A DNA stretch of 64,000 nucleotides from NCBI GenBank assembly GCA_029210125.1, contig JARGPR010000009.1:1-64000 (forward strand). Direction: 5' to 3'. Under the pieces are notes generated by a model. That model had not been told where the DNA came from, did no database searches, and saw only the letters and a list, made by a program, of their open reading frames with translations. Shown here piece by piece: positions 1 through 27,136 of the stretch. The position numbers and the translations under genes are program-made. This DNA is from Pseudomonadales bacterium. Lineage in GTDB: Bacteria; Pseudomonadota; Gammaproteobacteria; Pseudomonadales; JAHRWD01. Within the stretch, counting starts at the first letter, position 1. Every line of letters starts with the position of its first letter.

Positions 1-45
1 GTGGCTCGCTGATGACGTAAAGCATAGCCGCGACGCTTGATAGAG

Positions 46-135
46 TGCTAACGCCTTTGTAACGGGCAGCGTTGTGGCGAAGCCACGCTTTTAGCTGTCC
101 AGCCCGAAGGGCGATCGTTGACAAACTTGTTAAGC
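46..135 (-). repeat. attC site A of integron array
   Basis: On the plus strand the region is bounded by TGCTAAC (46-52) and GTTAAGC (129-135), the complementary core sites of an attC recombination site, with partly self-complementary sequence between. Two small stems with GAA loops (GTGGC-GAA-GCCAC and GCCC-GAA-GGGC) lie inside. It is almost the same as attC B at 549-638, as expected for homogeneous attC sites of a chromosomal integron. It belongs to the cassette carrying the ORF at 143-544. The leftmost core is slightly degenerate. The cassette beyond it leaves the window: bases 1-45 hold no recognisable gene. Confidence 0.8.
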
Positions 136-142
136 ATTTTCT

Positions 143-544
143 CTACCACAGTACGTACTTGTATTTTACTTGGCCAGACTCAATATTTATTGAGCAATTA
201 GCCAAGACCTTTCCCACAACAAATTTTTCAAAGTAACCATTGCTCAAGGTGTATTCACTATTGCCGTTTAGCTTGCTATATATTTCAGCGGCAACCTCTG
301 GAGAAACCACTACTTCCCCGCTTTCATCATACCAAACACCTTGTGGTGCAATTGAGTATGAATGAGGTCGCTCACCAACAACATATTCTGAACTAAATTC
401 TTCATCACAAGCTCCTAAAAATACTTCTTCGATCGGCAGTGGAGTGGTTGGCCAGACCAGGGCAATAACAAGCAACACTGCAATCAGCAATGGCGGGAGA
501 ATTAATACTCCTAGAATAATCCTTACTGGCCGATTCAATTTCAT
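143..544 (-). CDS. Integron cassette protein, membrane-anchored, unknown function
   Basis: This 133-residue protein is not recognised. Residues 9-31 form one strongly hydrophobic segment after a positively charged start, so it is probably anchored in the inner membrane with the rest outside the cytoplasm; it could also be a long signal peptide. The remainder is soluble with two cysteines. The ORF lies exactly between two attC sites and its stop codon is next to the core site of attC A, so it is the whole gene of one integron cassette. It reads away from the integrase, as normal cassette genes do, and was probably acquired horizontally. Confidence 0.75.
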   Translation of the reverse strand: MKLNRPVRIILGVLILPPLLIAVLLVIALVWPTTPLPIEEVFLGACDEEFSSEYVVGERPHSYSIAPQGVWYDESGEVVVSPEVAAEIYSKLNGNSEYTLSNGYFEKFVVGKVLANCSINIESGQVKYKYVLW

Positions 545-548
545 AGAT

Positions 549-638
549 GCTTAACGCCTAGTGAATGGGCAGCCTTGTGGCGAAGCCACGCTTAAGGCTG
601 TCCAGCCCGAAGGGCGATCATTGCACGCCTTGTTAAAG
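549..638 (-). repeat. attC site B of integron array
   Basis: The site is bounded by GCTTAAC (549-555) and GTTAAAG (632-638). The inside matches attC A over most of its length, including the stems GTGGC-GAA-GCCAC and GCCC-GAA-GGGC and the outer pair AGCCTT/AAGGCT. This attC ends the cassette of the 633-1022 gene, whose stop codon TAA overlaps the core site. The near identity of A and B shows both cassettes share one attC family. Confidence 0.85.
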
Positions 639-1022
639 GTTACCTGCCGCGATGCCCACTATTATTAAAATTGCTATACCTAACATGAACCAATTGCCGA
701 ATTTACGACTAGCAATAGATTCTTGAGTGCTGATTGGTTGCAGTGGAAGTGACGCTAATTCACCGAAACGACCTGCAAGCCAAATAAATGGTATGGCTAC
801 TAAAACATAAATATTATTGCTGACAAAGAATACAAGAATTGTCAGTGCTATTACCAGCCAAGAAACTAGAAATGGCCAGGCTGATTGAAAACCAAGCCGA
901 TACTTTGAGTGAACATAACTCAACTCACCGCAGCTACTACATTTTGCAGGTGTATCGGACCCGCACCAGAACTTGGTCCATATTCCTATTCCATTATTCT
1001 TGCAGTGTGGACACTGAAACAT
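633..1022 (-). CDS. Integron cassette protein with zinc ribbon and membrane segments
   Basis: This 129-residue protein is not recognised by name. It starts with a CPHC pair (C4, C7) followed by CSSC (C28, C31), a classic four-cysteine zinc ribbon of about 30 residues. Hydrophobic segments follow at about 47-67, 69-86 and 113-128, so a small metal-binding head is tethered to the membrane. The ORF fills the cassette between attC B and attC C. The start codon lies a few bases after the core of attC C, which is usual in cassettes. Function is unknown. Confidence 0.75.
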   Translation of the reverse strand: MFQCPHCKNNGIGIWTKFWCGSDTPAKCSSCGELSYVHSKYRLGFQSAWPFLVSWLVIALTILVFFVSNNIYVLVAIPFIWLAGRFGELASLPLQPISTQESIASRKFGNWFMLGIAILIIVGIAAGNL

Positions 1023-1029
1023 GAAAGAC

Positions 1030-1134
1030 CTTTAACGCTCAGCTCACCGCGCAAATTTTAGATGGCGCTTTTTTTGCGTCTTTTTGCAAAAAAGGTGACA
1101 GCTAAAATTTGTCCGGTGGAGCTGCTTGTTAAGG
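1030..1134 (-). repeat. attC site C of integron array (long stem)
   Basis: Core sites CTTTAAC (1030-1036) and GTTAAGG (1128-1134) bound about 105 bp that fold back on themselves. CAGCTCACC near the left pairs with GGTGGAGCTG near the right, AAATTTTAG pairs with CTAAAATTT, and a T/A-rich centre closes the hairpin. The family differs from attC A and B, so this cassette came from another source. It ends the cassette carrying the lipoprotein gene at 1129-1665. Confidence 0.85.
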
Positions 1135-1665
1135 CTTTGATAACTTGAAGGTATCACGTTCATTTTTAAGATTGCTGACTACGACTAGTTCTACTGGAAA
1201 TTCAATTGGGGCATTTATATCTAAAACATCAATGTTCCACCAAAATCCTACACCTCCCGAGTAAGATATAGGTCTGTTGGCAATAGAATCACGACCTTTT
1301 CTTCGGTAAATTTCTTTGCCGTCTTTAAGAAGCACATATTCGAGCCATTTAGGGTTGGCAGCATCAATAGTTAGCGCCTCATAATGGATTTGTATTCTGC
1401 CACCTTGAGGTAAATTTTCTAATGCTTCTTTAAGTTCACTCTCTGAAGACATTCGATTATTCATTGTTTTAGTAACTTCAGTTCTTAGGAAATTATTGTC
1501 TTTATATTCTATAGTGACCCCACCGCCATAAATTTGTTTATCATGTTCGATGGAATATCCATTGCCTTCATTATAAGGCAATCCTGTTATCTTATTTAAT
1601 GCTGCGCAGCCAGAAAGCACCAATAATAAGCAAAGAACAATATAGGCTTTTTTATACGTAAACAT
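1129..1665 (-). CDS. Integron cassette lipoprotein, unknown function
   Basis: This 178-residue protein has a clear lipoprotein signal: basic start, hydrophobic stretch and lipobox LSGC with the modified cysteine at residue 20. The mature part is hydrophilic and probably beta-rich, and it is exported to the periplasm or outer membrane. No family is recognised. The stop codon lies in the core site of attC C, so the gene fills one cassette. It reads in the normal cassette direction, away from attI, and could be transcribed from a cassette promoter near attI. Confidence 0.8.
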   Translation of the reverse strand: MFTYKKAYIVLCLLLVLSGCAALNKITGLPYNEGNGYSIEHDKQIYGGGVTIEYKDNNFLRTEVTKTMNNRMSSESELKEALENLPQGGRIQIHYEALTIDAANPKWLEYVLLKDGKEIYRRKGRDSIANRPISYSGGVGFWWNIDVLDINAPIEFPVELVVVSNLKNERDTFKLSKP

Positions 1666-1694
1666 TTAATTTTCCTTCTAGTTGTTGTTTTATG

Positions 1695-1749
1695 CCTTAA
1701 CGCCAAAAGTAACCGGCGGCGTAGCCGTCCGATTGACGACTTGTTATAC
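1695..1749 (-). repeat. attC site D of integron array (short)
   Basis: CCTTAAC (1695-1701) and GTTATAC (1743-1749) are the two outer core sites, about 55 bp apart. The interior contains the stem CGGCGGC-GTA-GCCGTCCG. This is the shortest attC of the array, near the minimum for the class. It belongs to the cassette nearest the integrase, which runs to the attI core at 1992-1998. Confidence 0.75.
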
Positions 1750-1769
1750 GAATTAAGAGGAGCGATATA

Positions 1770-1997
1770 ATGCTTGCAATAGTGAACGTAACAGAATGCG
1801 AAGGCCAGGAACTTGACGACTACGAGATTAGAATTAACTCCCGCGTGATTGGTAGATTCCAGCACGAACGGAGTTACAACGGGGCTGCACAGTGTTTACG
1901 TGATGCCGCTGATTGCATGGATAAAAAAGGGCGAGATATTGATACAGATGCACTAGAAGCGTTGCTGCCACTCTTTAAGAGAATTGATGCCGTATAA
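1770..1997 (+). CDS. Small protein of first cassette, inverted relative to the array
   Basis: This 75-residue acidic soluble protein is not assigned to a family; its general look (short, cysteine-containing, hydrophilic) is common among integron cassette products. The start ATG is preceded by AAGAGGAG at a good spacing, so it has its own ribosome binding site. The stop codon TAA overlaps the attI core GTATAAC at 1992-1998. It runs toward the integrase, opposite to the other cassette genes, and so cannot use a cassette promoter in attI. It must have its own promoter or be silent. It sits in the first position, normally the best expressed and most recently inserted. Confidence 0.7.
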   Translation: MLAIVNVTECEGQELDDYEIRINSRVIGRFQHERSYNGAAQCLRDAADCMDKKGRDIDTDALEALLPLFKRIDAV

Positions 1998-2103
1998 CAG
2001 TGTTAATAAGCGGAACCCATTTTCCACGTATTGGTTGTATATAGGTGGATAGGTTTTCCATGTATTATGATATTAAGATATAAAACATGGAAAATTACAA
2101 CTT
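1992..2103 (-). other. attI recombination site and integrase leader
   Basis: This is the region between the first cassette and the integrase start. GTATAAC at 1992-1998 is the complement of the crossover core GTTATAC. It contains TTTTCCACGTATT (2020-2032) and TTTTCCATGTATT (2054-2066) as direct repeats, plus ACATGGAAAA (2085-2094) as an inverted copy, a pattern like the integrase-binding repeats of attI sites. No LexA-type CTGT-N8-ACAG box is visible, so SOS control of the integrase is not supported. A closely related sequence lies at 27055-27136. The limits are inferred from position. Confidence 0.7.
2054..2094. promoter_or_regulatory. Inverted repeat upstream of the integrase gene
   Basis: TTTTCCATGT (2054-2063) and ACATGGAAAA (2085-2094) are perfect 10-base inverted repeats around an A/T-rich 21-base centre, ending 9 bases before the integrase start codon. 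The centre holds several -10-like sequences in both directions. It could be integrase binding sites, an operator, or a hairpin in the integrase leader. The sequence does not decide between these. Confidence 0.5.
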
Positions 2104-3117
2104 ATGCGATCTCGCCGAGAGAATATACCCGATAAGCCTCTTTTTCGTCCTCAACCGGGTAAGCTGCTTGAGCAGGTATCTGAGGTGATGCGTTACTATC
2201 ACTACAGTAAGAGGTCGGAAGAGTCGTACCGACGTTGGATCAAGCAATTTATTTTGTTCAATGATAAGCGCCATCCATCTGAGTTGGGGAAACCGGAAAT
2301 CGAACGTTTTTTGAGCCATTTGGCGGTTAATCGTAACGTCGCGAGCTCAACACAATCACAGGCTTTAAACGCGATTGTATTTCTCTACAAAAAGGTGCTG
2401 GATCTACCGATCGCTGATGACTTAGCACCGATACGTTCCAAAAAACCTGTGCGCTTGCCGGTTGTGCTGTCTACCGAGGAGATGTCTAGATTACTTGCGC
2501 AGATGTCGGGTGATAATTTGCTGATGGCGCGTTTGATGTACGGAGGTGGTCTTCGTTTGATGGAGTTGGTGAGGCTGCGTGTTAAGGATATCGATTTTGA
2601 TAACGGATATATCGTGGTGCGGGACGGCAAGGGTGGGGGCGACCGCACTACTCTGCTGGGCGAGTCTGTAGTGGATGATTTGAAAGCGCACCTGGCGCAG
2701 GTCAGGCAGATTTATGATCAGGATTTTTCGGATGGGAATGCCAATGTCTATATGCCGAATGCACTGGCTCAAAAATTCCGCAATGCACCGTCATCCTGGG
2801 ATTGGCAGTATGCTTTTCCATCTAAAAAGTTGTCGAAAGATCCGCGTAGTGATGCGATTAGACGCCACCATGTGAGCGAGTCTAATTTACAAAAAGCGAT
2901 TCGAGTAGCGAAAAATCGGGCGGGCATTACTAAACCGACTACGCCCCATACGTTACGGCATTCTTTTGCGACTCATTTATTGGAGGCGGGTACTAATATT
3001 CGTGTGGTACAAAAATTACTGGGTCATAAAGATGTTAAGACCACGGAGATTTATACCCATGTATTACAGCAGCAATTGCATAATGTGGTGAGTCCTCTGG
3101 AGCGGCTTAAGTTTTAG
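2104..3117 (+). CDS. intI: Integron integrase IntI (tyrosine recombinase)
   Basis: This 337-residue tyrosine recombinase recombines attI with attC sites to capture or excise cassettes. Catalytic residues are visible: R151 (GGLRLMEL), K176, H282 and R285 (PHTLRHSF), H308 (LLGHKD) and Y317 (EIYTH). Residues about 227-256 (around WDWQYAFPS to RRHH) form the extra segment that separates IntI from other tyrosine recombinases. The length is normal and no frameshift or stop is seen, so it is probably active. The gene is divergent from the cassette array, with attI on its 5' side, the standard integron layout. Confidence 0.95.
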   Translation: MRSRRENIPDKPLFRPQPGKLLEQVSEVMRYYHYSKRSEESYRRWIKQFILFNDKRHPSELGKPEIERFLSHLAVNRNVASSTQSQALNAIVFLYKKVLDLPIADDLAPIRSKKPVRLPVVLSTEEMSRLLAQMSGDNLLMARLMYGGGLRLMELVRLRVKDIDFDNGYIVVRDGKGGGDRTTLLGESVVDDLKAHLAQVRQIYDQDFSDGNANVYMPNALAQKFRNAPSSWDWQYAFPSKKLSKDPRSDAIRRHHVSESNLQKAIRVAKNRAGITKPTTPHTLRHSFATHLLEAGTNIRVVQKLLGHKDVKTTEIYTHVLQQQLHNVVSPLERLKF

Positions 3118-22639: not shown

Positions 22640-24451
22640 ATGTCAGGTTTGATCCCCCAAAGTTTTATCGAAGATCTGCTCACCCGAGTCGATATTATCG
22701 AAATCATCGATAGCCGCACGCCAATAAAACGTGCCGGAAAAAACTACAGCGGTCTCTGCCCCTTTCATAACGAAAAAACCCCCTCCTTTTCAGTCTCGCC
22801 GGATAAACAGGTATACCACTGCTTTGGCTGCGGCGCGGGCGGCAATGCCATTAGCTTTTTAATGGATTATGAGAGTCTTGAATTCACAGAAGTAATCGAG
22901 CAACTCGCATCCCAGGCTGGGTTAGTTGTGCCCCGTGAAGGCCAGCGGGATGATCAAAAAACCAAACAACGCGCTACCATCTATGAACTCCTGCAAAAGG
23001 TAGATGACTACTACCAGGAGCAACTGCGAAATCACAACGAGGCCGAAGCAGCCAAGCAGTATTTAAAAGATCGTGGATTATCAGGCAAACTCGCCAAACA
23101 ATATGGTTTGGGTTTTGCACCCCCGGGCTGGCAAAACCTGCTTCATCGTTTTCCCGATGAAGAGCAGCGCAAAATGTTACAACAGTGCGGCCTATTGGTA
23201 GATAAAGAAGATGGCGGTCGATACGACCGTTTTCGCCACCGCATCACCTTTCCAATTCGTGACCAGCGCGGCCGGGTAATCGCCTTTGGAGGGCGAGTGA
23301 TGGGTGATGACAAGCCCAAATATATCAACTCACCAGAGTCACCTGTTTTCCATAAAAGCCAGGAACTTTACGGATTATACGAAGCACGTAAAGCCAACCG
23401 AGACCTCAAACGTATCATCGTGGTTGAAGGTTATATGGACGTTATTATGCTCGCCCAGCATGGTTTTACCGAAGCGGTCGCCACCCTTGGCACCGCCATC
23501 AATACTGCGCACCTAGAACGAGTATTCCGTAACTGCTCCGAAGTCATATTCTGCTTTGATGGCGACAGGGCAGGTAAAGCCGCGGCCTGGCGAGCACTGG
23601 AAGCCGTAACCCCAGTGATGACCGATGGCCGGCGGGCACGTTTCTTGATGTTGCCCGAAGGCGAAGACCCGGACAGCCTGGTGCAAAAAGATGGGCCAGA
23701 CCGTTTTGCTCAAAGGCTCGAGCAAGCACAACCCTTATCGGACTATCTGTTCCAACAACTAACCCAAAATATCGATATGAACGGTCTGGATGGCCGCGCC
23801 CAACTGGCCGCTGAAGCACGGCCCCTGATTCAGCGTTTCCCGCGGGGCGTATTCTATCAATTGATGGTGGATAAACTGGCGGAAAGCACCGGGATGAACA
23901 AACAGGATATGGCCGCATATCTGAACACCGGTAAAAAGAATGACGCCGGGCGACAACTGCAGCAGCAGTCACCCCAACGTGGTTCCGCCTCTCGACCAGC
24001 CAATGCAAAGCCCATAAGTGCCGCGCCCGTCAACAAAGGCTTCCGCCAGCACCAGCTTCCCTCGTTAGATTCCGCAACCATGCTATTACTGCACAGTCCA
24101 TCGCTGGCAAAGGTAGCACCGGATTTAAGTGATATGGATCTGGACAACAACCCCGAACTAGCCCTATTGATTGAACTGATCGCTCGTTTCAAGCAAGAAC
24201 CCCAGCTGAATATTGGAGTCCTGATGAGCCATTGGCAGGGCACCCCAAAAGGCGCGCGGGTAGTACAGTTAGCCAGCCGCCAAACCCTGCTGGAAGAGGA
24301 ACAGTTTGAACCAGAGTTTCTTGGGGCTATTCAAAGGTTACGAGAAAACGAAGGGGAATCACGCTTTAAAGCACTATCACAACGACCGCTCAAATCACTT
24401 TCTCCCGAGGAAAAGGTCGAGCTCCGCGAATGGTTGGCACGTCGCTCTTGA
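22640..24451 (+). CDS. dnaG: DNA primase
   Basis: This 603-residue primase makes RNA primers for replication. The CHC2 zinc finger is CPFH...CFGC at about residues 40-64. The TOPRIM catalytic core has VVEGYMDVIMLAQHG and FCFDGDRAGKAA, and the C-terminal helicase-binding domain is at about 450-603. A variable Q/P-rich linker (about 430-460) precedes the last domain. The last 70 codons are repeated at 25677-25885, so its 3' end may have been exchanged. rpoD, which normally follows, is missing. Confidence 0.97.
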   Translation: MSGLIPQSFIEDLLTRVDIIEIIDSRTPIKRAGKNYSGLCPFHNEKTPSFSVSPDKQVYHCFGCGAGGNAISFLMDYESLEFTEVIEQLASQAGLVVPREGQRDDQKTKQRATIYELLQKVDDYYQEQLRNHNEAEAAKQYLKDRGLSGKLAKQYGLGFAPPGWQNLLHRFPDEEQRKMLQQCGLLVDKEDGGRYDRFRHRITFPIRDQRGRVIAFGGRVMGDDKPKYINSPESPVFHKSQELYGLYEARKANRDLKRIIVVEGYMDVIMLAQHGFTEAVATLGTAINTAHLERVFRNCSEVIFCFDGDRAGKAAAWRALEAVTPVMTDGRRARFLMLPEGEDPDSLVQKDGPDRFAQRLEQAQPLSDYLFQQLTQNIDMNGLDGRAQLAAEARPLIQRFPRGVFYQLMVDKLAESTGMNKQDMAAYLNTGKKNDAGRQLQQQSPQRGSASRPANAKPISAAPVNKGFRQHQLPSLDSATMLLLHSPSLAKVAPDLSDMDLDNNPELALLIELIARFKQEPQLNIGVLMSHWQGTPKGARVVQLASRQTLLEEEQFEPEFLGAIQRLRENEGESRFKALSQRPLKSLSPEEKVELREWLARRS

Positions 24452-24509
24452 GCTAGCCCTTCAGGTTACAGCAGGAAATCAGATATTAGATTTAACTCAG
24501 CCTGTTAGA
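24243..24509 (+). repeat. Direct repeat, copy 1 (dnaG 3' end and downstream)
   Basis: 267 bases from inside dnaG to GTTAGA are repeated at 25677-25943 with a constant offset of 1434 bases and no gaps. I count about 33 differences by eye (about 88% identity), most of them silent in the dnaG frame. The similarity stops sharply after GTTAGA at 24504-24509. The segment between the copies carries fic. This looks like a gene-end replacement by an inserted element or a recombination between related strains. Confidence 0.9.
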
Positions 24510-25620
24510 AATATGTGTTCACAGCAAATTCAAACTGCTCTATAAATATTTTCTTAAATGCCGAAATATTGTTTTGCTCATAGAAAAGCAGCATCGCTTT
24601 TTTATAATCAATGGAGCTGACAGTGCGAAATGAAATAGGGCAGTGTTGGTGATCAATAAGCACCGTATTGCTAATAATTCTGGCGGTGCGTTTATTGCCA
24701 TCATCAAAGGCTTGAATATAGGAAAGCAACACCAATACCAGCAGCGCCTTCTCAAAAACATTGCTTTTTAAGTTCACCAGCTCGCAAACTAGTTGAAGGG
24801 CTTCACGAATCTGAAACTCATTATCCAGCGGCGCATAGTTGGTGCCAGTAATACCCACCTTGCGGCGGCGAATGTTCTGCTCCACCCCCAGCTCCGTCAT
24901 CAACAAACTGTGAACATACTCAATACCTGCCACTTGTAGCGGGCGGGACAATCCTTCATGAGAAAAGATAAAGTCGAGCGTCGCCTTATGATTAAGCAGC
25001 ATGGTCGCATCGTCTCGAGGTTTGCCTTCTGCTGTTTGTTGCTCCTTTAATAAACGCTCTGTTTCTAACAAAGAATAGGTATTCCCCTCAATTTGTGACG
25101 ATTTCCAGCTCAAATCAATGGCTAAGCGTTCCAGTTCTTTCCTATACGCGGCTTCACTCAATTGCGCGATATTATTGCGGTAGCGGTTTTGTAATGTATC
25201 TAAATGCGCCATTTCGGTTTGTGTGAACAGATCCGTTTGCGGCAAACGGTCTCGTAGCAGCGTCCAGTTGAAACTCGACCTAACGACTCGTTCATCAATC
25301 TCTTTGAGAAAATAATCTTCAATATCAATGGGGTAAAACAATTCAAAGCCAGAATCCACTATGTAGCGTGTGGCTCTGCCTTTCCCGGTGGTCTGCAGCA
25401 AGCCTTCGGAAACCAGCTGTGCTAGTAGCCGTTTTACCGTTGCATAGCCAACATCTAAACCTGCCTCTTCATATAAGGCCTTGGATGATAATGATGGGTT
25501 GGCGTGGATATATTCAGCCAGTTTTGCAGCATTAGCCGATAGCTTCACTGTTGCTGTTCCTTTTTTACACTCAACTGCCGTTTCTAGATTTAAGCTCACG
25601 CTAAAATAAATATAGCTCAA
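24505..25620 (-). CDS. Fic family protein with winged-helix domain and altered active site
   Basis: The 371 residues hold an N-terminal winged helix-turn-helix (about 20-90; LAQLVSEGLLQTTGKGRATRY) and a Fic fold. SSQIEGN at about 173-179 fits the inhibitory motif (S/T)xxxE(G/N). The active-site loop reads QAFDDGNKR where HxFx(D/E)GN(K/G)R is expected: the catalytic His is Gln (codon CAA, complement at 24712-24714). Fic enzymes AMPylate or otherwise modify proteins, and without His this activity should be lost or changed. The gene is flanked by dnaG-end repeats, and its stop lies in the GTTAGA junction. Confidence 0.88.
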   Translation of the reverse strand: MSYIYFSVSLNLETAVECKKGTATVKLSANAAKLAEYIHANPSLSSKALYEEAGLDVGYATVKRLLAQLVSEGLLQTTGKGRATRYIVDSGFELFYPIDIEDYFLKEIDERVVRSSFNWTLLRDRLPQTDLFTQTEMAHLDTLQNRYRNNIAQLSEAAYRKELERLAIDLSWKSSQIEGNTYSLLETERLLKEQQTAEGKPRDDATMLLNHKATLDFIFSHEGLSRPLQVAGIEYVHSLLMTELGVEQNIRRRKVGITGTNYAPLDNEFQIREALQLVCELVNLKSNVFEKALLVLVLLSYIQAFDDGNKRTARIISNTVLIDHQHCPISFRTVSSIDYKKAMLLFYEQNNISAFKKIFIEQFEFAVNTYF

Positions 25621-25676
25621 ACCTTAGCATAAATGAGCTTTAAAACCCTACCCAATGAGCTTAAAACCACTTGTCG

Positions 25677-25943
25677 CCCCAAAGGGCGCACGGGTAGTGC
25701 AGCTAGCCAGCCGTCAAACCCTGCTGGAAGAGGAGCAGTTTGAGCCAGAGTTTCTCGGCGCTATTCAAAGACCGCGGGAAAATGAAGGAGAATCACGTTT
25801 TAAAGCCCTATCACAATGGCCGCTCAAATCACTTTCTCCCGAGGAAAAAGTCGAACTCCGTGAGTGGTTGGCACGTCGCACTTGAGTTAGCCTTTCAGGT
25901 TATGGCAGGAAATTAGGTATTAGATTTAACTCAGTTTGTTAGA
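25677..25943 (+). pseudogene. Direct repeat, copy 2: dnaG C-terminal fragment
   Basis: This second copy of the dnaG 3' end encodes the last 69 residues of primase in frame. It differs from DnaG at three sites (Leu to Pro, Arg to Trp, Ser to Thr) among many silent changes. An accidental ATG at 25655 opens a 76-residue frame, but no ribosome binding site of note precedes it. The fragment could not act as a primase; it holds only part of the helicase-binding domain. The dominance of silent changes means the copy diverged under selection in a complete dnaG before it came here. Confidence 0.88.
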
Positions 25944-26001
25944 TATTGGTGCCCGTTAAAGCGGGGGGAAATCACAAGTCTTTAGCAGCGCTTTGTTATA
26001 C
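25938..26001 (-). repeat. Degenerate attC-like site of the DUF2971 cassette
   Basis: GTTATAC at 25995-26001 is identical to the outer core of attC D, and the stop codon of the DUF2971 gene lies in it, as in true cassettes. On the minus strand AAAGCG next to it pairs with CGCTTT at about 25956-25961. The other core is not the expected GTTRRRY but AACGGGC, so the site appears damaged or formed by an atypical insertion. The left edge meets GTTAGAT (25938-25944) at the end of the dnaG repeat. Confidence 0.55.
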
Positions 26002-27054
26002 ATATTCAAGTTCCGCACTCAAGTCTGATATTTTTGAGTACCTTTCATCGATTTCCTTTGGCGTGAGGTATAAATTTTCGTGTCTAGATTTAGATCTTTG
26101 ATACTGCCCAAAAAACACTGGCTTCCCTAGTTTGCTCTTATCAAAGCTTACTTCGACCATTTGAACCTCATTGCAGTATGGCTCACGCCTTACTATCTCC
26201 GCCATTTTATGTAGGTATGGAGAAAACTCAGACCACTTCTCATTTAAGGCGTCTGGATCAACTGCGTATTCGGCTATAGGTGCAATTGAATACATGTATT
26301 TCTTATCTGTTGGGTATAAGTCTTCGAGCGGTTCAGTAGTGAATTTGTAAGAATTATCTTTAAGGCTGATATGATAATATTTGATGTCTCTACCACACAG
26401 CCTTTTCATTACTTCCTGTCTTTTTTCGTTTGGCATTCTTAGGCCAAAGTAAATAGATTTTACAGCTCTGTAGTCATAATTTTGTAAACCAGATTCAGAC
26501 GTAATTACTCTTGTTTCTTTTTCATAATCCCATTTTGTAGATTTGACGCCAATTAACTTCTGAATGAAGCCAACCTTGTCTTCAATTGCAAGCATATCAT
26601 TGATATTTAGCTTTGGCGGATGATCGCTATATGTTACGTTGAAATTGAAGTAGTCATTACGCCCAAAATAAACCAAAGTATCTAAATCATACTCGATACA
26701 GAAGCCCTTATGGCTATTTGCATAGTGTGCCCATAGCAACTCGTTAGTACAATTTTTGCTGAGAGAGTAAACACCTGCCGAGTCTTTCTTCTCAATAAGA
26801 TCATTAAGAGATTGCTTTACGGAATCTACAGAACTGCTTATCCCTTTAATTCCCTTTCCTAATACCCCCGCCGTCAAATCAATTTGACTAAGAAGAACTT
26901 CTGACGAGACCAACCCTTCACACGGGTCGTTTAATGCATCCCTAGTAGGAGCCCAGAAAGTATCTTTTTCAAGAGACTCTAGATCTCTAATAAAGATACT
27001 TTCATTTCCGCCCCTATATTTAAAAACTCTCACGAACTCGGTTATCCTCTGCAT
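25996..27054 (-). CDS. DUF2971 family protein, cassette-like
   Basis: This 352-residue soluble protein has LESLEKDTFWAPTRDALNDPCEG near the start and LLWAHYANSHKGFCIEYDL in the middle, the hallmarks of DUF2971. Function is unknown; the family is common in integron cassettes and accessory regions. The start codon lies within eight bases of an attI-like core (27055-27061) and the stop within an attC-like core. The gene therefore has the exact outline of a cassette inserted at attI, but no integrase is next to it. No good ribosome binding site precedes the ATG inside the cassette itself. Confidence 0.82.
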   Translation of the reverse strand: MQRITEFVRVFKYRGGNESIFIRDLESLEKDTFWAPTRDALNDPCEGLVSSEVLLSQIDLTAGVLGKGIKGISSSVDSVKQSLNDLIEKKDSAGVYSLSKNCTNELLWAHYANSHKGFCIEYDLDTLVYFGRNDYFNFNVTYSDHPPKLNINDMLAIEDKVGFIQKLIGVKSTKWDYEKETRVITSESGLQNYDYRAVKSIYFGLRMPNEKRQEVMKRLCGRDIKYYHISLKDNSYKFTTEPLEDLYPTDKKYMYSIAPIAEYAVDPDALNEKWSEFSPYLHKMAEIVRREPYCNEVQMVEVSFDKSKLGKPVFFGQYQRSKSRHENLYLTPKEIDERYSKISDLSAELEYV

Positions 27055-27136
27055 GTGTAACAGCGTTATCTAAGCGGAGCCCATCCTCCACGTATTACAT
27101 GTATTGTGATATTAACATGGATGATTCTAGGTAATG
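27055..27136 (-). other. Second attI-like site without an integrase
   Basis: It matches the attI region beside intI: core GTGTAAC (27055-27061), TAAGCGGA-CCCAT (27071-27084), TCCACGTATT (27087-27096) and ATGTATT-TGATATTAA to ACATGG (27099-27120). In both copies ACATGG is followed 13 bases later by ATGCG, which at the first site is the intI start. It is shorter by about 25 bases in the direct-repeat part. After ATGCG there is no integrase sequence, so this is an attI remnant or a displaced leader. The following 27137-27284 holds no gene. Confidence 0.7.

What the first reader, a model, noticed from the sequence alone, without database searches (positions are those of the whole stretch)
24243..25943. 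dnaG 3' end duplicated around a fic gene with mostly silent differences
The 267-bp copies are gap-free at an offset of 1434 bases and about 88% identical; protein changes are only three in 69 residues. That pattern shows the second copy evolved inside a working dnaG of another strain or species. The likely event is an element or donor fragment that replaced or restored the dnaG end, as many islands do at tRNA or gene 3' ends, but with no integrase and with a core gene for replication as the target.
Basis: partly seen in the sequence, partly recalled or inferred. Interest (0 to 1): 0.75.

Follow-up and report, generated by a model that had tools for sequence, protein, structure and literature searches.

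The report
Primase gene tail duplicated around fic
A bacterium's essential DNA-primase gene carries two versions of its tail, one working and one stranded behind an inserted fic gene, most likely because a short piece of DNA from a related species was added rather than swapped in; three other genes in the same genome bear similar scars.

Summary
The last 207 coding bases of dnaG plus about 60 bases after it (24243-24512) recur at 25677-25946, without gaps, offset 1434, 87% identical. The changes are overwhelmingly silent (dS 0.64, dN 0.02). Drift of a dead local copy does not give that, so the two tails diverged mostly inside two working dnaG genes of related lineages. All three amino-acid changes lie on the second copy; one puts proline where 65 of 66 aligned primases have L, I, M, V or Y. 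The second copy looks like a fossil.

I think it likelier that the second copy is the native, displaced tail, and the working tail plus fic the import. No integrase lies between dnaG and queG. Gene-end duplications around cargo occur at three other genes in a third of this genome; about 1.5 Mb of other bacteria gave no clear case. I read the structure as additive, one-sided recombination of short DNA from a congener, like prophage e14 in icd in its result but without an integrase. No genome of the same species was at hand, so donor and recipient stay inferred. Side lead: attI-like sites scattered after genes.

The parts
22640..24451 (+). dnaG, intact DNA primase (603 aa); its last 68 codons lie in copy 1
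   Evidence: ORF; Pfam Zn_ribbon_DnaG, DNAG_N, Toprim, DnaB_bind, DnaG_DnaB_bind
24243..24512 (+). copy 1: working 3' end of dnaG plus about 60 nt downstream (inferred import)
   Evidence: direct repeat; codon analysis
24505..25620 (-). fic gene (371 aa); Fic motif has Gln where FICD has His (YIQAFDDGNKRTAR)
   Evidence: Pfam PF02661; alignment to FICD; same Gln in relatives L143 and L144
25621..25676 (.). fic upstream region; TGAGCTTTAA-type repeats, perhaps autoregulatory operators, one also upstream of the fic of G045
   Evidence: sequence, compared by eye with L143; operator role inferred
25676..25677 (.). junction between fic upstream DNA and the truncated dnaG copy
   Evidence: left limit of the repeat
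25677..25946 (+). copy 2: fossil dnaG 3' end, no internal stop or frameshift, three residue changes
25937..25974 (.). remnant of an IS3-type insertion-sequence end (33 of 38 nt match G000:C24:51342-51379)
   Evidence: IS3 assignment by eye from the frame beside the match in L115, recalled, no family search
25996..27054 (-). DUF2971 gene; stop codon overlaps TATAAC, which looks like the start of an attC site that is cut short
   Evidence: Pfam PF11185, PADLOC PDC-S31, sequence
27057..27119 (-). degenerate attI-like element directly before DUF2971
   Evidence: nhmmer 25.6 bits, 25.4 bits
1989..2097 (-). attI-like element between intI and a cassette array
2104..3117 (+). integron integrase intI
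   Evidence: ORF; TIGR02249, 436.7 bits against a cut-off of 265

Best explanation
A short piece of DNA from a related species of the same genus, holding the end of its dnaG, the spacer after it and a fic gene, entered the cell and was added to the chromosome at dnaG. Pairing of the two dnaG ends supplied one join. The other join was non-homologous: the far end of the fic fragment met a dnaG end about 207 coding bases before its stop. The working dnaG therefore has the incoming tail, and the recipient's own tail is stranded behind fic and has begun to decay. The join could be homology-facilitated illegitimate recombination (HFIR), or a single crossover with a small self-ligated circle of about 1.43 kb; the sequence does not separate these. 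Shown: the repeat, the silent divergence, the residue changes confined to copy 2, no integrase family among the genes of the interval, and the recurrence. Inferred: which copy is foreign, the route, and the donor.
For: Silent divergence, dS 0.64 against dN 0.023. The copies are closer to each other (silent difference 0.43 per site) than either is to the congener (0.81 and 0.78), so the source is a near but distinct lineage. The shared stretch runs past the stop into spacer, as chromosomal DNA would. All three residue changes are on copy 2. Three further genes in the same genome show the same layout: a COX1-like oxidase (3' end, 79%), a sulfotransferase (3' end, 81%) and a 256-aa gene (5' end, 90%), with 1.2, 1.1 and 2.7 kb between copies. 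The sulfotransferase pair is also silent-rich (dS 0.92, dN 0.12) and its fossil has a frameshift. HFIR inserts average about 1 kb (PMC3240628, introduction read); three of the four inserts here are 1.1-1.2 kb. ComEC, a DNA-uptake protein, is present.
Against: HFIR products generally carry a deletion, not a duplication (PMC3240628), although my scan looked only for duplications. No microhomology can be shown at 25676/25677 without the donor. A single crossover would have to occur within about 270 bp of 87% identity. ComEC proves little: 12 of 14 control genomes match the family, 5 above its cut-off. The oxidase pair is not silent-rich to the same degree (10 silent against 13 residue-changing differences, dS 0.29, dN 0.11), so it could be partly a local duplication that decayed. 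No genome of the same species was at hand.
Confidence: 0.55

Rival explanations
1. Remnant or integrase-less form of a site-specific element that inserts in the 3' end of dnaG and brings its own tail, as prophage e14 does in icd.
For: Same anatomy as e14/icd: hybrid working gene, cargo, displaced 3' end of similar length (163 bp in icd; PMC6379469 passages). The repeat starts sharply inside dnaG.
Against: No integrase family among the genes of the interval. No second dnaG end in any of 90 dnaG loci with the gene end in hand (few of them close relatives, and G001 is among them twice). The shared stretch runs about 60 nt past the stop. The same layout occurs at unrelated genes, one of them at a 5' end. 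No phage record matches the DNA, and no relative of the tail peptide was found in viral contigs.
Confidence: 0.17
2. Mirror image: dnaG with copy 1 and fic is native, and the stretch from 25677 rightwards (copy 2, IS3-type remnant, DUF2971 and on towards queG) was imported from a congener, with pairing on the queG side.
For: With one congener the two copies cannot be polarised (10 against 8 sites). The dnaG-queG interval differs between the two genomes.
Against: The DUF2971 side carries repeats of this genome's own families, though a congener would share them. The residue changes are all on copy 2, which either polarity allows.
Confidence: 0.15
3. Local duplication first, then replacement of the working tail by ordinary homologous exchange with a congener.
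For: Gives the same pattern with common mechanisms.
Against: Needs two events, and the exchange tract would have to stop close to the fic stop codon. Simple duplication with drift alone is rejected.
Confidence: 0.09
4. Assembly chimera of two strains.
For: The genome is in 31 contigs and its origin is not stated.
Against: No repeat is seen across 25676/25677 that an assembler could have used as overlap (inference). Two of the three other fossils carry a frameshift or a lost start codon, which a chimera of working genes would not give.
Confidence: 0.04

Closest known systems
Prophage e14 in icd of E. coli K-12
   Same: Core gene with an imported 3' end, cargo, and the old 3' end displaced as a pseudogene (PMC6379469, passages seen)
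   Different: e14 is a 15-kb prophage and integrates site-specifically. Here 1.2 kb with one gene, no integrase family found, similarity running past the stop, and the same layout at unrelated genes
Homology-facilitated illegitimate recombination (HFIR)
   Same: One homologous and one non-homologous join; inserts of about 1 kb (PMC3240628, abstract and introduction read)
   Different: Usual products carry a deletion; here sequence is duplicated. That the donor is another species is inferred, not observed
Single-crossover integration of a ligated, non-replicating circle
   Same: Leaves the shared stretch on both sides of the insert (mechanism named in PMC3240628; the outcome is from general knowledge)
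   Different: Short and diverged shared stretch (about 270 bp, 87%)
Chromosomal integron; attG insertion of cassettes; truncated attI sites in cassettes
   Same: IntI and an array lie in the same window; DUF2971 looks like a cassette. attG sites and truncated attI sites are described in PMC12901181 (passages)
   Different: fic has no attC and its right junction shows no integron-type G/TT join (sequence). The truncated attI sites of that paper lie inside arrays of mobile integrons, not after chromosomal genes

Membership tests
HFIR product | homologous join on one side, non-homologous on the other | tested here: inconclusive
   Repeat and abrupt left limit fit; no donor or empty site available
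HFIR product | 3-10 bp microhomology at the illegitimate join (most cases) | not testable with these tools
   Needs the donor sequence
HFIR product | coupled deletion of recipient DNA (general) | tested here: not met
   Duplication instead
Single crossover of a circle | direct repeat of the shared stretch bracketing the insert | tested here: met
Single crossover of a circle | switch from native to donor inside the shared stretch | tested here: inconclusive
   10 against 8 sites relative to the only congener
e14-like integrative element at dnaG | integrase gene within the element | tested here: not met
   Only fic lies between the copies; DUF2971 and an NAD-binding protein beyond
e14-like integrative element at dnaG | same site used in relatives | tested here: not met
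   0 of 90 dnaG loci with the gene end in hand show a second end; close relatives are almost lacking
e14-like integrative element at dnaG | displaced 3' end of the target gene | tested here: met
Integron gene cassette (fic) | attC site after the gene | tested here: not met
   DNA after the fic stop is the dnaG spacer; no attC form seen by eye
Integron gene cassette (DUF2971) | attC after the gene and attI or attC before it | tested here: inconclusive
   attI-like element before; only the first part of an attC-like site after, no significant fold (z -0.37)
Fic protein family | Pfam Fic domain above cut-off | tested here: met
   46.4 bits against 24
Fic AMP-transferase | catalytic histidine of HxFx(D/E)GNGRxxR (motif recalled) | tested here: not met
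   Gln at that place here and in two relatives

The most novel reading that the evidence does not exclude
This genus runs a distributed integron. Copies of an attI site lie just after genes around the chromosome, each collecting cassettes, and short units of 'gene end plus cargo' are passed between species and added beside such genes. The dnaG-fic structure would be one of these exchange scars, and the cell's primase a hybrid of two species as a by-product.
Probability: 0.2. Interest if true: 0.8.

Novelty: new variant of a known kind. Interest (0 to 1): 0.45.

Why it matters
If right, an essential replication gene was rebuilt with another species' end as a side effect of taking up a single accessory gene, without an integrase. 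The fossil end records the event. Similar scars at three more genes in a third of the genome suggest a general way in which this lineage gains short pieces of foreign DNA, and such fossils can be searched for in any genome. The scattered attI-like sites, if they work, would extend the integron from one array to many.

Tried and rejected
Local duplication with drift: rejected by silent and residue counts. dnaG spacer as an attI-like site: rejected (no nhmmer hit; alignment scores as in shuffles). fic as an integron cassette: no attC. Phage or plasmid origin: no phage record matches and one plasmid record matches, over fic only; no relative of the tail peptide in viral contigs and no exact match of a 29-base stretch shared by both copies; one viral contig holds a 59% fic relative. 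By protein, 116 plasmid records hold fic relatives below 60% identity. fic in the order: 2 of 390 genomes at E 1e-60, this one and G045 (66%). No Rfam family in the window at gathering threshold; promoter and terminator matches near the copies are no more than in shuffles. A first attC finder found nothing in the known array of the window, so its counts are void. A BLAST of the four array attC sites found one partial hit behind a scattered attI-like element and one in L181, which has none. Repeats that I dropped: in G000, L193 (one copy at the stretch edge), L195 (both copies inside ORFs), L208 (106-bp internal piece of an MMPL gene, ambiguous); in the controls, L209 (G044, both copies outside long ORFs, one at the stretch edge), L055 (one copy at a stretch edge, ambiguous) and 13 others with both copies in ORFs. 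Papers: searches; their listings show no title or abstract start reporting islands in the dnaG end or many scattered attI sites. The six papers that name dnaG were not read; the library holds open-licence papers only, so this is weak evidence of absence.

Full report
What is there. dnaG (22640-24451, +) is intact. Its last 207 coding bases and about 60 bases of spacer recur in direct orientation 1434 bases downstream, 87% identical and without gaps. fic lies between, on the other strand. The own genome shows no third copy at E 0.001.

More than drift. The coding parts differ at 25 of 207 sites, 20 of them third positions; dS 0.64, dN 0.023, three residue changes. Twenty-five random changes never gave three or fewer residue changes in 5000 simulations. 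If half the silent changes had fallen on a free copy, 33 residue changes would be expected. So most of the divergence arose while both sequences were under selection in working genes. All three residue changes are on copy 2; the congener agrees with copy 1 at all three residues. L567P hits a position that is L, I, M, V or Y in 65 of 66 aligned primases, the last being a gap; the 66 include this genome, and some genomes may be there twice. R582 and S603 are variable positions. Copy 2 has thus started to decay, but lightly: no internal stop and no frameshift. Its open frame has an in-frame ATG (25655), so a small surviving peptide is not excluded; I did not test for one.

Which lineage. The family has two genomes in the collection, this one and G001. 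G001 (MAG NORP341; L033 is the same locus) has an 85% identical DnaG. The two copies differ from each other at 0.43 of silent sites and from G001 at 0.81 and 0.78. The spacer shared by the copies is not recognisable after dnaG in G001 (by eye and BLAST). The source is therefore a lineage nearer than G001. At the 25 differing sites G001 sides with copy 1 at 10, copy 2 at 8 and neither at 7, so polarity is open.

Surroundings. An rpoD start motif (recalled) is found in 26 of 29 same-order dnaG loci, missing in G001 and two others. In the window other genes follow dnaG, and rpoD of G000 is on another contig. Between dnaG and queG, G000 has fic, the fossil, an IS3-type remnant, DUF2971 and an NAD-binding protein. 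G001 has there several short ORFs, a piece of an IS3 transposase (below its cut-off) and a Phd antitoxin with a weak RelE (25.0 bits, cut-off 27.9). DUF2971 begins right after a degenerate attI-like element and ends in what looks like the start of an attC site, though that stretch does not fold better than shuffles. In G001 a copy of the same element lies right at the end of queG.

Recurrence. I scanned 53 stretches of G000 (1,053,543 bases) for direct repeats of 100-900 bp, up to 98% identical, 300-8000 bp apart. Of 7 found, 4 join a gene end to a truncated copy: dnaG; a COX1-like oxidase (3' end, 79%; a glyoxalase-family protein and a Phd/ParE pair between); a sulfotransferase (3' end, 81%; one reversed PEP-CTERM gene between); and a 256-aa gene without a Pfam match (5' end, 90%; LysR and a dehydrogenase between). 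Controls in the same call: G044, 20 stretches, 400,000 bases, 3 repeats, none of this kind; 79 loci of other bacteria, 1,146,598 bases, 12 repeats, none clear (one at a stretch edge is ambiguous); G001, 5 stretches, 72,341 bases, none. A bias must be told: 14 of the 53 G000 stretches contain an attI-like element, many of them chosen for it, and all 4 cases fall in those 14 (4 of 14 against 0 of 39, Fisher P 0.003). So the rate is not a genome average, and the controls, which hold no such element, were not drawn from comparable variable regions. The sulfotransferase pair is silent-rich (dS 0.92, dN 0.12), with a frameshift in the fossil; the oxidase pair is less so (dS 0.29, dN 0.11) and does not by itself call for another species; the fossil of the 256-aa gene has lost its ATG.

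Mechanism. The four cases differ in gene, cargo, divergence and even gene end, and share the layout and short inserts. That speaks against an element with one fixed target and for additive, one-sided recombination of short DNA, at least in the dnaG and sulfotransferase cases from another lineage. HFIR explains one homologous and one non-homologous join and inserts of about 1 kb, but generally deletes (PMC3240628). A self-ligated circle with a single crossover explains the duplication directly but needs a crossover in a short, diverged stretch. I cannot choose between them. ComEC is present, which allows but does not show competence. The e14/icd case (PMC6379469, passages) is the nearest look-alike I found, with an integrase.

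Verdict.

Side lead. An element of about 110 bp sits between intI and its cassette array. One search found 17 matches to G001's copy in the G000 genome at E 1, 13 of them below 1e-9. A profile found 21 copies at E 0.001 in the 725,884 bases given to, 17 in G000 and 4 in G001; the weakest two score 20.8 and 25.6 bits. In 15 of 21 an open frame of 100 or more residues ends 30-330 bp before the element's end, in the same direction; by eye and recall these include recO, dcd, ppsA and, in G001, queG. Of 23 gene ends examined behind such elements, 7 show by eye a TAACA...GCGTT span like attC, but only 4 of 23 fold clearly better than shuffles (z -2 or lower, best of several spans). The element was found in 2 of 390 genomes of the order, both of this genus. 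The stretch around G001's own intI shows none (L188), which counts against calling it simply the attI of this integrase. That most attI sites lack the direct repeats of attI1 is stated in PMC8191803 (passages).

Noticed in passing
window 1989-2097 and 27057-27119; L152, L161, L164-L166, L168, L173-L179 in G000; L033, L185-L187 in G001: An attI-like element of about 110 bp, next to intI and scattered mostly just after codirectional genes, with cassette-like genes following; 21 copies in the DNA given, found only in this genus among 390 genomes of the order.
   Followed up: partly
window 1-2100: A cassette array with four attC-like sites and intI divergent from it; of the three sites folded, z is -4.7, -2.2 and -0.8. 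The window starts at a contig end, so the array is cut.
   Followed up: partly
window 24505-25620: The Fic protein and its relatives in L143 and L144 have Gln in place of the catalytic His (YIQ.F.DGNKRTAR), so this group may have lost or changed the usual activity.
   Followed up: partly
L161 10410-12155; L178 4782-6349; L179 5499-8574: Three more gene-end duplications around cargo in the same genome.
   Followed up: partly
L123, L124, L132, L134 (the same places as in L173, L174, L179, L161): A similar short sequence (TTGTTAGTCGGCGCT...CACAGTGCAGTTGTAATAAG) follows the attI-like element at four places, three of them contig ends, as if one non-coding cassette sat at several sites and broke the assembly.
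   Followed up: no
L188 (G001:C79:45000-61412): Several copies in a row of a stretch of about 1.2-1.3 kb, 74-77% identical, on the contig that carries G001's intI.
   Followed up: no
window 22640-24451: dnaG is not followed by rpoD, unlike in 26 of 29 same-order loci; rpoD lies on another contig.
   Followed up: partly
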